Below are positions 53,999-57,762 of a DNA stretch of 64,000 bases, piece by piece (positions within the stretch are counted from its first letter, which is position 1; every line of letters begins with the position of its first letter). The position numbers and the translations under genes are program-made. The stretch spans positions 657,501-721,500 of the forward strand of contig NZ_CP015506.1 in the NCBI RefSeq assembly GCF_000294775.2, given 5' to 3'. Under the pieces are notes generated by a model that saw nothing but the letters and a program-made list of their open reading frames with translations, did not search any database and was not told the origin of the DNA. This stretch comes from Cytobacillus oceanisediminis 2691. GTDB taxonomy: Bacteria > Bacillota > Bacilli > Bacillales > Cytobacillaceae.

Positions 53999-55231
53999 AT
54001 GTTGAAAGAAGTCATTCCCGTAAATGAGATTACTAATTTTAAGTCACGTGCAGAAGAGTTTTTTCCTATTGAGTGGTATAAGGACATGCTTCACCATCAT
54101 CCCGTGTATTATCATGAACAAACGAATACATGGAATGTGTTTACCTATGAGGGTGTGAAACAGGTGCTGGGCAACTATGAATTTTTTTCAAGTGCCGGAC
54201 CGAGAACAACGATATTTGTTGGGGCAAATGACAAGCATGAGAAAGCGTCGCCTTTAACAAATCTTACACTTGTAGATCCGCCGGATCATCGGAAAGGGCG
54301 TTCCTTGTTAGCAGCAGCTTTTACTCCCCGCAGTTTAAAGAATTGGGAGCCGCGCATCAAGCAGATTGCCGAGGAGCTAGTAGAAAACATCCAGGATAAT
54401 AATGAAATTAATATTGTTGAGGCTTTAGCAGCCCCGCTGCCAAGTATGGTTATTGCAGATTTATTCGGCGTGCCGATACAGGACAGAGCTCAATTCAAAG
54501 AATGGGTGGATATCCTTTTCCAGCCTTACGATAAAGAGAGACTGGAAGACATAGAGCTTCAAAAACAGAATGCTGCGAAAGAATATTTCCAATATCTCTA
54601 TCCGATTGTTGTTCAAAAGCGGTCGAACCTTTCGGATGATATTATCTCTGATTTAATTCAAGCTGAAGTAGATGGTGAAAAGTTTACCGATAATGAAATT
54701 GTGCAGGTGACCATGCTGCTTTTAGGCGCAGGAGTGGAAACAACCAGTCATGCGATTGCCAATACGTTTTATTCATTGCTTTATGATGATGAGTCTTTAT
54801 ATGGAGAACTGCGTAATGACCTGGAATTAGTGCCAAACGCAGTTGAAGAAATGCTCCGCTATCGTTTTCATATGTCGAGAAGAGACCGAACTGTGAAAAA
54901 AGATAACAATTTATTGGGCGTTGAGTTAAAAGAAGGGGATGTCGTTATTGCCTGGATGAGTGCATGCAATATGGACCATCGGATGTTTGAAGATCCTTTT
55001 TCTATAAACATACATCGTCCTAACAATAAAAAGCATCTAACATTCGGAAATGGCCCGCATTTCTGTTTGGGTGCACCTCTGGCACGCCTGGAAATGAAAA
55101 TAGCACTGGAGACCTTCGTGAAGAAGTTCTCCAGCATCGAACCAGTGGAAGGGTTTGAATTAGAAAAGAATTTAACGGCATCAGCCACTGGCCAGTCTTT
55201 AACGAATCTGCCGATGAACGTGTATAAGTAA
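53999..55231 (+). CDS. Cytochrome P450 (CYP109/107-like)
   Basis: 410 residues. The I-helix reads LLLGAGVETTSHAI (acid replaced by Glu before Thr-Thr), the EXXR motif is EEMLRYRFHMSRRDR-adjacent, and the heme Cys is in FGNGPHFCLGAPLARLEM. This is a soluble class I bacterial P450 that needs separate ferredoxin partners, not encoded nearby. Relatives such as YjiB hydroxylate fatty acids and terpenoids. AAAGGAGG site; terminator CTCCCTTAAAGCAG/CTGCTTTAAGGGAG follows. Confidence 0.94.
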   Translation: MLKEVIPVNEITNFKSRAEEFFPIEWYKDMLHHHPVYYHEQTNTWNVFTYEGVKQVLGNYEFFSSAGPRTTIFVGANDKHEKASPLTNLTLVDPPDHRKGRSLLAAAFTPRSLKNWEPRIKQIAEELVENIQDNNEINIVEALAAPLPSMVIADLFGVPIQDRAQFKEWVDILFQPYDKERLEDIELQKQNAAKEYFQYLYPIVVQKRSNLSDDIISDLIQAEVDGEKFTDNEIVQVTMLLLGAGVETTSHAIANTFYSLLYDDESLYGELRNDLELVPNAVEEMLRYRFHMSRRDRTVKKDNNLLGVELKEGDVVIAWMSACNMDHRMFEDPFSINIHRPNNKKHLTFGNGPHFCLGAPLARLEMKIALETFVKKFSSIEPVEGFELEKNLTASATGQSLTNLPMNVYK

Positions 55232-55241
55232 GGAATAAAGG

Positions 55242-55279
55242 CTCCCTTAAAGCAGGCACACTGACTGCTTTAAGGGAGT
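55242..55279 (+). terminator. Terminator after the P450 gene
   Basis: CTCCCTTAAAGCAG and CTGCTTTAAGGGAG form a perfect 14-bp stem around GCACACTGA, then TTTTAAT. Confidence 0.93.
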
Positions 55280-55366
55280 TTTAATATTGGAGAGGTAAAG
55301 GATGAGGCTGAAATGCCAGCTTCATTTTGCTAAAATAAGGGTAATTCTCTTGAAGGAGCATAAAGA

Positions 55367-55906
55367 ATGACCATTCAAATATTTATATTAACCAAACTGA
55401 TGGAGGGTAAGAATTATCCTTATAAAATAAAAAAGCAGCTTTCAGAGCCTATTCCATTTGATCAGCTAGCTGGATTGACAGAAAGCAAGCTGTACTACCA
55501 TTTCGATTCATTAGCGAAACAGGGCTTAATTGCAACAGTCGAAATAATTAAAGAAGAACATCGGCCGGATAAACAAATATTTGAAATCACAGCTAAAGGC
55601 CGGGAAGAGCTGCCGAAAAAAATCTACAAATTGTTTGAAACGGCCGATTCGATCGGTGAAATGTTGGTGGGTTTAGCCAACATCAAATATGTAGATCAAG
55701 ATAAAGCAGTCGCTATCCTTGAAGAGAAATTAAAGAGCTCCAAGGCTAAGTGGGAGTATTATAAAAGTTTTGAACAGCTGGTTGAAAAAGACAAAGATAA
55801 TGAGAAACTGATCGAGTTTCTTGGCGGGTATGTGTCGACCAAAGCAGAGCACGCTATTTATTGGCTGGATAAGCTGATTGGGCAGATTAGAGAAGGGAAG
55901 ATATGA
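55367..55906 (+). CDS. PadR family transcriptional regulator
   Basis: 179 residues: an N-terminal winged helix (TIQIFILTKLMEGKNYPYKIKKQLSEPIPFDQLAGLTESKLYYHFDSLAKQGLI) and a C-terminal helical dimerisation part. PadR proteins usually repress detoxification genes and release DNA on ligand binding; the P450 upstream is a likely target. GAAGGAG precedes ATG. It ends near a convergent terminator. Confidence 0.9.
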   Translation: MTIQIFILTKLMEGKNYPYKIKKQLSEPIPFDQLAGLTESKLYYHFDSLAKQGLIATVEIIKEEHRPDKQIFEITAKGREELPKKIYKLFETADSIGEMLVGLANIKYVDQDKAVAILEEKLKSSKAKWEYYKSFEQLVEKDKDNEKLIEFLGGYVSTKAEHAIYWLDKLIGQIREGKI

Positions 55907-55978
55907 GGGGTGTTATAACTAATGTATTCACATGAATGTTAGATTAACAACCTTTTTTGTGCTATTGAGACAAGTTAA

Positions 55979-56017
55979 GAAAGCACATATTCATAAATAA
56001 AAAGGATATGTGCTTTC
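55979..56017. terminator. Bidirectional terminator
   Basis: GAAAGCACATAT and ATATGTGCTTTC, 12-bp perfect stem with a 15-base loop between convergent genes. Confidence 0.88.
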
Positions 56018-56021
56018 ATTC

Positions 56022-56975
56022 TTATGTTCTTTTCTCTTTAGTGATAAATAATAAAATCTGGGTGATGACGGCCAGGATAGGCAATTCCAGCAGAGGGCCT
56101 ACTACTAAGGTCAACGCAATCAAAGGCTGGTCTGGAAATGCAGTCATAGCAATGGCTAAAGCAATCGGGGAATTTCTGGCTAAAGTGGTCAAGCTTAAAC
56201 TGGCTCTGTCGGAGTTCGGGAATCTCATAAGCTGTCCAGCTTTTTGACTGACAAAAAGATTAATCATAAAAAATAAAAGAATAGGTATTGTTATTTTCCA
56301 CAGTAAATCTAAATGGTTAAGCAATAATTGTCCCTGTGACGCAAACATTGCCACGATGGCAAAGTTTAGAAAAATAATTGGCAGCACGCTAAGGCTGGAT
56401 ACAAGGCTTTCTCTTAACTGATCCTTGTTTTTTAAGAGTATCTTTGTTAAAACAGCCAGAACTAACGGTATGATTAATGCAACCAGAATACTTTCAACTA
56501 AAAACCCCAGTTCTATTACTCCTGTCGTTCCGCCAAAGATCAGAAGGCAGATAGGCAGCAATATGACCTGTAAGATTAAGTTTAGAGGCAGGATAGCAGT
56601 TGATAAGGCAACATTTCCTTTTGCTATGCCTGTAAAGATTAGGTACCAATCAGTGCATGGTGTAACCATCAGCATAATAAATCCAATATATAGTGATGGA
56701 TTATCGCCTAAAAATACCATTGCCAGCAGCCATGCCAGGATGGGTGTCCAGACAAAGTTTATGAGGATTGAAGTGTATGTAAATTTTATGTTCTTAAAAG
56801 CTATCTTGATATCTTCAATAGGAATTTGTAAGAAAGTAATATATAGCATTGCTACTAATAAAGGCACAATAAAACTTTCCGCATTAGCCCTTATTAACTC
56901 TGCTTGCCCTATACTAATACCAAAAATCACTGCTAAAAATATTATAACAGTATATAATTTTTCAATTAAGTTCAA
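56022..56975 (-). CDS. ACR3-like / bile acid:sodium symporter family exporter
   Basis: 317 residues with ten hydrophobic segments. LMVTPCTDWYLIFTGIAKGN carries the Cys used by ACR3 arsenite exporters, and ARNSPIALAIAMTAFPDQPLI is the second discontinuous helix. It could export arsenite or a related oxyanion, but no arsR or arsC is adjacent, so the substrate is open. The frame begins with TTG 56975, with GTGAG upstream. A 16-bp perfect palindrome lies 23 bases before it. Confidence 0.85.
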   Translation of the reverse strand: MNLIEKLYTVIIFLAVIFGISIGQAELIRANAESFIVPLLVAMLYITFLQIPIEDIKIAFKNIKFTYTSILINFVWTPILAWLLAMVFLGDNPSLYIGFIMLMVTPCTDWYLIFTGIAKGNVALSTAILPLNLILQVILLPICLLIFGGTTGVIELGFLVESILVALIIPLVLAVLTKILLKNKDQLRESLVSSLSVLPIIFLNFAIVAMFASQGQLLLNHLDLLWKITIPILLFFMINLFVSQKAGQLMRFPNSDRASLSLTTLARNSPIALAIAMTAFPDQPLIALTLVVGPLLELPILAVITQILLFITKEKRT

Positions 56976-57066: not shown

Positions 57067-57157
57067 CATTTCTCCATAATTTCTCCATATTTATTTGCTA
57101 TTGTTTACTTTGGCAATAGTTATTTAAGCATGAAACTGAATAAGGATGTGAACAAAG

Positions 57158-57685
57158 ATGAAGGTAAAACTATTTCTGTCTGTCTTACTCATTTCAATAG
57201 TATTAGCTGGCTGTGGACAAGCCGATTCAAATGATGAGGCCGCTTTGAAGGCTGATAACATCAAGGAATTGGTGAATGATTATAGTGCAGGAAACGTTAA
57301 GAGCGAGTCTGCTTCGATTACCTCACAGCAGCTACTGGTAAAAAAAGCGGATGGTGAAGAATTAGTCTATGATCTGCCGAAAGAAGAGTTTTTCGTTTCA
57401 ATTGCACCTTACGTTAATGAAACCCACCCTTGAACTAATCATAGCTTGACAGGTTGTCAAGGTGAATTAGCTGATAAAGAGTTTGATGTATATATCGAAG
57501 ATACGGAAGGCAATGTCATTTTGAACGAAAAAGTAAAGTCCCAAGCAAATGGATTTTTTGATTTATGGCTCCCAAGAGATGAAACATATCAAATAAAGAT
57601 TAAGTATGATGGAAAAACATCGGAATCAGAAATTTCAACTTTTGAGAATGAGGGTACTTGTATTACAACCATGCAATTAACTTAA
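57158..57685 (+). CDS. cueP: CueP-family copper-binding lipoprotein with in-frame UGA, candidate selenoprotein
   Basis: A 175-residue reading frame with a single in-frame TGA at 57431-57433 (codon 92). Residues 1-91 hold a lipoprotein signal (LAGC) and the CueP N-terminal domain (IKELVNDYSAG...DLPKEEFFVSIAPYVNETHP). The same frame resumes TNHSLTGCQGELADKEFDVYIED and ends GTCITTMQLT. CueP has three conserved metal-binding cysteines (96, 104 and 172 in Salmonella). Here codon 92 is UGA, with Cys at 100 and 168, the same spacing. A 7-bp hairpin follows the UGA. I read codon 92 as selenocysteine; a nonsense mutation is the alternative. CueP handles copper outside the membrane. Confidence 0.8.
57445..57461 (+). 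promoter_or_regulatory. Candidate bacterial SECIS hairpin in cueP
   Basis: CTTGACA and TGTCAAG pair perfectly around loop GGT, starting 11 bases after the UGA. The E. coli fdhF element also begins 11 bases after its UGA, with a 7-base left arm and a GGUC loop, so the geometry is almost the same. Confidence 0.75.
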
Positions 57686-57725: not shown

Positions 57726-57762
57726 TGAACAGCTGCCAAGAGGCAGCTGTTTTTATTTTTAA
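57724..57762 (+). repeat. Intergenic element, hairpin half
   Basis: AACAGCTGCC-AAGA-GGCAGCTGTT followed by TTTATTTTT. A second terminator directly after the first; the palindrome part is missing. Confidence 0.7.

What the first reader, a model, noticed from the sequence alone, without database searches (positions are those of the whole stretch)
57158..57685. CueP with an in-frame UGA at a conserved copper-ligand cysteine, plus a SECIS-like hairpin
Seen: one frame of 176 codons interrupted only by TGA at codon 92 (57431-57433). Other Cys codons at 100 and 168 give the same 8 and 76-residue spacings as C96, C104 and C172 of Salmonella CueP. Immediately downstream CTTGACA-GGT-TGTCAAG forms a perfect stem with a GG-first loop starting 11 bases after the UGA, nearly the fdhF SECIS geometry. 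Known: Sec commonly replaces catalytic or metal-binding Cys. Inferred: a selenoprotein CueP, in which selenolate would bind Cu(I) tightly; I know of no described case.
Basis: partly seen in the sequence, partly recalled or inferred. Interest (0 to 1): 0.95.

Follow-up and report, generated by a model that had tools for sequence, protein, structure and literature searches.

The report
Selenium-containing copper protein CueP
In 117 genomes of the Bacillus group the gene of the copper-handling protein CueP carries a UGA stop codon exactly where relatives have a conserved cysteine, each time followed by the same kind of RNA hairpin, so these cells likely insert selenium-bearing selenocysteine there and likely make a selenium form of a copper protein that is absent from the selenoprotein catalogue we read.

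Summary
Confirmed, and wider than the finding. The window's cueP (57158-57685) is open except for UGA at codon 92; read through, it matches Pfam CueP at 147 bits, cut-off 27. The genome has SelA, SelB, SelD and tRNA-Sec. Of 196 CueP loci read at codon 92, 123 have UGA, 72 Cys, 1 is broken; none has Trp. A 7-bp hairpin with GGU loop is intact in 123 of 123 UGA copies; 4 of 72 Cys copies keep the 7 pairs, 3 of them with GGU. Its paired synonymous sites change together: 110 T-A, 13 C-G, 0 mismatched. SelA is found for 121 of 123 UGA loci; the other two lie in incomplete assemblies with tRNA-Sec. Corrected for relatedness, the association tests are not significant; the case rests on position, invariance and compensatory change. 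A 2026 catalogue of 119 prokaryotic selenoprotein families lacks CueP; two searches found no paper linking them. Selenocysteine insertion, and whether it binds copper or does redox work, are untested.

The parts
57158..57685 (+). cueP, read-through frame of 175 residues plus TAA, UGA predicted to encode Sec at codon 92
   Evidence: PF21172, 147 bits, cut-off 27; NF038094, 192.3 bits, cut-off 60
57142..57146 (+). AAGGA, possible ribosome-binding site 11 bases before the ATG
   Evidence: by eye
57212..57214 (+). Cys19 of a lipobox (LAGC): predicted exported lipoprotein
   Evidence: by eye; C at this column in 111 of 114 UGA rows that reach it
57425..57427 (+). His90, invariant
   Evidence: 123 of 123 UGA rows and 72 of 72 Cys rows
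57431..57433 (+). in-frame UGA, predicted selenocysteine codon 92, aligned to a Cys of Salmonella CueP (C96 by my count)
57440..57442 (+). His95, invariant
   Evidence: 123 of 123 and 72 of 72 rows
57445..57461 (+). SECIS-like hairpin, 7 bp, loop GGU at 57452-57454, 18 nt after the UGA
57455..57457 (+). Cys100 (Salmonella C104 by my count)
   Evidence: 123 of 123 and 72 of 72 rows
57659..57661 (+). Cys168, third conserved Cys
   Evidence: 122 of 122 UGA rows that reach it, 72 of 72 Cys rows
57727..57752 (+). terminator-like hairpin with T run downstream of cueP
   Evidence: 1 found, mean 0.4 in shuffles; consensus match only

Best explanation
This is cueP, the gene of a predicted copper-binding lipoprotein, in which an in-frame UGA at codon 92 is predicted to be read as selenocysteine by the cell's own SelA, SelB, SelD and tRNA-Sec, guided by the 7-bp hairpin with a GGU loop that starts 11 bases downstream. 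Shown by sequence: the UGA stands at the column of a conserved Cys, the reading frame goes on under purifying selection, the hairpin is kept with compensatory changes, and the machinery is encoded. Inferred: SelB binds the hairpin and delivers Sec; the protein is exported and anchored to the membrane; Sec92 with Cys100, Cys168 and the invariant His90 and His95 would form the Cu(I) site of CueP, where a selenolate would hold or reduce copper better than a thiolate. Confidence: about 0.95 for Sec insertion; about 0.55 that the main role of the Sec is as a copper ligand, the rest mostly for a redox role.
For: Machinery in the same genome: SelA 551.2 bits (cut-off 267.9), SelB 371 (242.25), SelD 430.8 (125); tRNA-Sec 58.3 bits (cut-off 47), anticodon TCA. 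selD carries its own in-frame UGA with a downstream hairpin whose loop region reads GGUU. Codon 92 in 196 loci: TGA 123, TGT 49, TGC 23, TAC 1 (broken copy); C100 and H95 invariant in the 195 others. Hairpin 7/7 with GGT in 123 of 123 UGA copies; 7/7 in 4 of 72 Cys copies, 3 with GGT. Synonymous covariation 97.1/101.3 in UGA copies: 110 T-A, 13 C-G, 0 other; in Cys copies 44 of 72 Watson-Crick, 11 wobble, 17 unpaired. Median dN/dS 0.13 after and 0.20 before the UGA (740 usable pairs of 121 rows), no other in-frame stop in the aligned parts of these rows. SelA for 121 of 123 UGA loci and 26 of 65 Cys loci of known status; both SelA-less UGA genomes are 80-81% complete and have tRNA-Sec over the cut-off, whereas G911, a Cys copy with a whole hairpin, has neither. 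UGA+hairpin pattern in GTDB contigs: 99 of 100 matches lie in CueP.
Against: No protein or selenium data. Tree-corrected tests are weak: hairpin with Sec 5:0 with 2 ties in 7 starred pairs (p 0.0625), SelA with Sec about 2.6:1 with 3.4 ties (p 0.6). The isolated hairpin is only -5.9 kcal/mol, short of the -7.5 in the published bacterial SECIS model; the 47 bases after the UGA reach -7.5 in 116 of 123 UGA copies but also in 37 of 72 Cys copies. Few neighbours point to copper. At least four of the 123 UGA copies are damaged or cut short (L125, L123, L216, L195).
Confidence: 0.94

Rival explanations
1. Nonsense mutation, decaying gene or sequencing error.
For: The UGA would be called a stop; single broken copies exist (L191 with two stops, in a genome without tRNA-Sec over the cut-off).
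Against: The same codon in 123 loci of 117 genomes, frame kept under purifying selection, hairpin kept in every copy.
Confidence: 0.01
2. UGA is read as Trp or by ordinary near-cognate read-through, not as Sec.
For: Three of five public relatives that I opened carry Trp at this place (P0001, P0002, P0004); I take this for gene calling with code 4, untested.
Against: Sense codons at the site are Cys in 72 of 72 intact non-UGA copies, Trp in none; hairpin and Sec machinery go with UGA.
Confidence: 0.02
3. Selenium-dependent switch: the UGA mainly terminates, so that the 91-residue N-terminal piece is the usual product and full-length CueP appears only when selenium is plentiful.
For: UGA recoding competes with termination (general knowledge).
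Against: H95, C100 and C168 lie after the UGA, and that part has the lower dN/dS.
Confidence: 0.05
4. Sec is inserted, but its role is redox (reducing Cu(II), peroxide or chlorine oxidants, with a selenenylsulfide to Cys100) rather than holding Cu(I).
For: The 2026 review thinks redox functions likely for most uncharacterised selenoproteins (PMC13188914, section 7 part 1). Reference lists of PMC8966772 and PMC13201067 cite a paper titled as direct ROS scavenging by Salmonella CueP (the paper itself not held); cueP there is induced by N-chlorotaurine (passages).
Against: Only 4gqz (CueP) matches the model at E <= 0.001, no redox fold. A C104S change loses copper resistance in Salmonella (passage of PMC13201067).
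Confidence: 0.35

Closest known systems
CueP of Salmonella (PDB 4gqz; Pfam PF21172, NCBIfam NF038094)
   Same: Sequence family, predicted fold (Foldseek TM 0.73-0.75 by query, E about 1e-14), the Cys/His set
   Different: Cys at position 96 (my count) where this one has UGA; the Salmonella protein is periplasmic, this one a predicted lipoprotein of a Gram-positive group
Cys-form CueP of the same order and phylum
   Same: H90, H95, C100, C168; 33-67% identity to the window protein in 72 loci
   Different: Cys at 92; whole hairpin with GGU in only 3 of 72; 39 of 65 with known status lie in genomes without SelA
Copper- or metal-linked selenoproteins in the 2026 catalogue (CopZ-like 2Fe-2S proteins, SO_0444 Cu/Zn efflux transporter, E1-E2 ATPase, MbdU)
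   Same: Predicted Sec in proteins that handle metals
   Different: None is CueP; none of these entries has its Pfam or NCBIfam number
E. coli formate dehydrogenase SECIS (recalled, no call)
   Same: Short stem-loop with GGU in the loop, soon after the UGA
   Different: Host gene; exact loop and bulge not compared here

Membership tests
Bacterial selenoprotein gene | In-frame UGA aligned with Cys in homologues | tested here: met
   TGA 123, Cys 72 of 196 loci
Bacterial selenoprotein gene | Conserved coding sequence after the UGA | tested here: met
   median dN/dS 0.13
Bacterial selenoprotein gene | bSECIS: loop 3-9 nt, stem 4-16 bp, G in the first two loop places, 16-37 nt from the UGA | tested here: met
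   3 nt, 7 bp, GG, 18 nt
Bacterial selenoprotein gene | bSECIS: folding energy at or below -7.5 kcal/mol | tested here: inconclusive
   window hairpin alone -5.9; 47-base stretch meets it in 116 of 123 UGA and 37 of 72 Cys copies
Bacterial selenoprotein gene | SelA, SelB, SelD and tRNA-Sec in the genome | tested here: met
Bacterial selenoprotein gene | Selenium present in the protein | not testable with these tools
   needs 75Se or mass spectrometry
CueP family | Profile score over the curated cut-off | tested here: met
   PF21172 147 over 27 bits; NF038094 192.3 over 60; the narrower NF038095 145.2, below its 195
CueP family | Conserved Cys and His set | tested here: met
   H90, H95, C100, C168 present; the remaining Cys position is the UGA
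CueP family | CueP fold | tested here: met
   AlphaFold model, mean pLDDT 81.8, best match 4gqz; predicted only
CueP family | Export | tested here: inconclusive
   lipobox by motif only
CueP family | Copper binding | not testable with these tools
   -

The most novel reading that the evidence does not exclude
Selenocysteine is the usual form of CueP in selenium-using Bacillaceae (121 of 147 sampled loci in SelA-positive genomes): an exported selenolate-thiolate Cu(I) protein in largely aerobic soil and marine bacilli, a main user of the Sec machinery where formate dehydrogenase does not need it, so that copper tolerance depends on selenium supply and Sec and Cys forms have swapped many times.
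Probability: 0.45. Interest if true: 0.87.

Novelty: new variant of a known kind. Interest (0 to 1): 0.8.

Why it matters
It would add a widespread family to the selenoproteins and join selenium to copper homeostasis. It is predicted to be exported and occurs in bacilli that are often aerobic (general knowledge), while a 2026 review says aerobic bacteria rarely retain selenoproteins (PMC13188914, passage). In the window's genome none of the 7 formate dehydrogenase matches has an internal stop, so CueP may help explain why such bacteria keep the machinery. Gene callers would cut the protein at residue 91; among the 120 relatives listed by one protein search none was above 78% identity, though DNA of UGA copies up to 98% identical exists, so the full-length form seems to have been missed by annotation (a record bearing U might not be held there). 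The Sec/Cys swaps make a natural experiment on what selenium adds to a metal site.

Tried and rejected
Conserved operon: 130 neighbour proteins (126 of 156 neighbour frames, from 38 of the 39 UGA loci picked at up to two per genus code, plus 4 of the window) gave no common family; the commonest had 6 members, and 25 of 189 families were shown. A motif look, with motifs recalled, over up to three neighbours per side of 121 loci (94 UGA, 27 Cys) found a multicopper oxidase next upstream on the same strand in L102, L118, L112 and L212, and a P1B-type ATPase next upstream in L077 and third upstream (partial) in L109; Pfam agreed.

Shared operator upstream: k-mers in 143 upstream stretches gave nothing that I found convincing. 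Plasmids: 23 records with CueP, all below 60% identity; the codon at the Sec site was not read there. Rfam found nothing in the window at gathering scores. L283, the one pattern match outside CueP, lies in another frame of what looks like an unrelated gene: probably chance.

Rows dropped: L127 and L132 as repeats of G085 and G000, L124 and L135 without column 92; four fragmentary matches (two on G783 C13, one on G766 C1, one on G787 C263) were not fetched; L125, L186, L195 and broken L191 left out of the tree, L125 and L195 out of dN/dS; 7 phylum-sample Cys loci have no SelA status.

Literature: PMC13188914: outline, section 5, section 7 parts 1 and 2 of 3 (the whole Table 1), and passages; PMC9312934, PMC12013277, PMC5029168, PMC7558416, PMC13201067 and PMC8966772: passages only; others: search listings. 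Not held: Haft papers PMC12013261 and PMC9879109, PMC6827279, PMC2919089, the ROS paper (98); the Haft families are covered only through the review's table. Ten paper searches were answered.

Full report
Observation. The frame 57158-57685 has one internal stop, TGA at 57431-57433, codon 92. Read through, it matches CueP in Pfam (147 bits, cut-off 27; residues 49-173) and NCBIfam (NF038094), on both sides of the UGA. The one solved relative found, Salmonella CueP 4gqz, aligns with Cys at the UGA and Cys at residues 100 and 168. The hairpin is at 57445-57461. Taken alone it is not very rare: 6 of 200 shuffles fold as well, and 8463 of 200000 synonymous recodings make a 7/7 stem with a G-first loop, 1381 with GGT.

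Machinery. The window's genome (5.85 Mb, 2 contigs) encodes SelB, SelA, SelD and a tRNA-Sec over Rfam's score with anticodon TCA. selD has its own UGA in a KGG-U-GC context, followed by a hairpin whose loop region reads GGUU. None of the 7 formate dehydrogenase alpha matches in this genome has an internal stop.

Spread. CueP was sought in 193 genomes of the family (104 with a match), 397 of the order (88) and 398 of the phylum (10, of which 9 over the cut-off). I read codon 92 in 196 of the 198 sequences compared: TGA 123, TGT 49, TGC 23, TAC 1. The UGA copies are in 117 genomes, 26 genus codes and 13 family codes; all come from the family and order samples. In the thin phylum sample both UGA copies belong to the window's own family. 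The pattern of UGA plus hairpin gave 100 stretches in GTDB contigs, 99 of them inside CueP; 97 of these 99 are named as Caryophanales, including Ammoniphilus resinae of the Paenibacillaceae; the other two bear names of unrelated groups and are probably mislabelled. The named records nearest to the window over the full length are a Lysinibacillus bin (98.3%) and Cytobacillus oceanisediminis 13_TX (92%).

Hairpin. All 123 UGA copies keep 7 of 7 pairs and the GGT loop (118 with Watson-Crick pairs only); of 72 Cys copies 4 keep 7 pairs, 3 of these with GGT. The first base of codon 97 and the third of codon 101, both synonymous sites, are T-A in 110 and C-G in 13 UGA copies and never mismatched; in Cys copies 44 of 72 form a Watson-Crick pair (T-A 35, C-G 9), 11 a wobble pair, 17 none. 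Of five UGA copies with Ala instead of Thr98, two have TGC instead of TGT at Cys100, which restores a G-C pair, and three keep a G-T pair. On the best tree the first pair type changes at least 5 times and the second at least 4. Codon diversity collapses in codons 97-101 of UGA copies only: Gly99 is GGT in 123 of 123, against four Gly codons in Cys copies. Against the published bacterial SECIS model (PMC13188914, section 5) loop, stem, G and spacing fit; the energy limit is met by the 47-base stretch in 116 of 123, but this does not discriminate (37 of 72 Cys copies), and the window's hairpin alone is -5.9.

Sec and Cys. SelA is found for 121 of 123 UGA loci and 26 of 65 Cys loci of known status (Fisher 1.6e-20, not corrected for relatedness). 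The two exceptions, G179 and G183, are 81% and 80% complete and hold tRNA-Sec over the cut-off. The tree of 192 rows needs 23 Sec/Cys changes, 7 of them forced by starred branches. On independent pairs the associations are not significant: hairpin 5:0 with 2 ties (p 0.0625), SelA about 2.6:1 with 3.4 ties (p 0.6). Three Cys copies keep the whole hairpin: L031 is 92.5% identical to a UGA copy (L083); L212 sits in a genome without SelA and without tRNA-Sec over the cut-off; L030 is the third. I read these as recent UGA-to-Cys changes (inference).

Selection and structure. In 740 usable pairs of 121 UGA rows the median dN/dS is 0.13 after the UGA and 0.20 before it. H90, H95 and C100 are invariant in all 195 rows and C168 in all 194 that reach it. 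The model (mean pLDDT 81.8) finds 4gqz first, E about 1e-14, TM 0.73-0.75 by query. A lipobox-like motif, loosely defined, is found in 112 of 122 UGA rows.

Function. In Salmonella CueP is a periplasmic copper protein that supplies Cu,Zn-SOD and protects against copper (PMC7558416 passages; PMC13201067 passages), with conserved Cys and His clustered as the copper site; C104S loses the protection. The window's genome has a Cu,Zn-SOD-like gene over the Pfam cut-off whose frame shows the usual His and Asp motifs by eye. Three UGA copies and one Cys copy with whole hairpin lie next downstream of a multicopper oxidase, and one UGA copy next to a metal P-type ATPase, but no common neighbourhood was found and the window's own neighbours (SBF transporter, flavoprotein, P450) say nothing about copper. 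I commit to a Sec-Cys-Cys-His copper site as the likelier role (about 0.55), with redox chemistry as the rival (about 0.35).

Novelty. The May 2026 review counts 119 prokaryotic selenoprotein families and subfamilies; its table has no CueP. CueP occurs together with selenoprotein or selenocysteine in one unrelated paper of 5.39 million open ones. NCBIfam's two CueP models bear no mention of Sec in name or description; the narrower one is not reached. The protein search listed the best 120 of 1230 relatives; no name listed says selenoprotein, the best was 78% identical, and three of the five that I opened have Trp at the UGA site. The papers of Haft and co-workers, and RefSeq records with U, could not be read directly, so prior annotation of single records is not excluded.

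Noticed in passing
L191 (genome G741): Broken CueP copy: TAC at codon 92 and a stop at the C100 codon, in a genome without SelA and without tRNA-Sec over the cut-off.
   Followed up: partly
L103 and L110 (G045); L169 and L138 (G619): One genome carries both a UGA copy and a Cys copy of CueP, on different contigs; G182 has three UGA copies.
   Followed up: no
L218:3121-5295: A family-4 glycosyltransferase lies directly before selD in one frame without a stop between; nearest NCBIfam models GPMC glycosyltransferase (266.6 bits, cut-off 400) and SenB (61, cut-off 300), both below cut-off.
   Followed up: partly
L228 and L309: Records named Chryseobacterium sp. ISL-80 and Pseudomonas sp. ISL-84 hold UGA cueP like that of bacilli, so are probably mislabelled.
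   Followed up: no
P0001, P0002, P0004: Public proteins with Trp at the UGA site, probably from gene calling with code 4.
   Followed up: no
window 53999-56975: Cytochrome P450, a frame that resembles a PadR-type regulator and an SBF-family transporter upstream of cueP; no link to copper seen.
   Followed up: no
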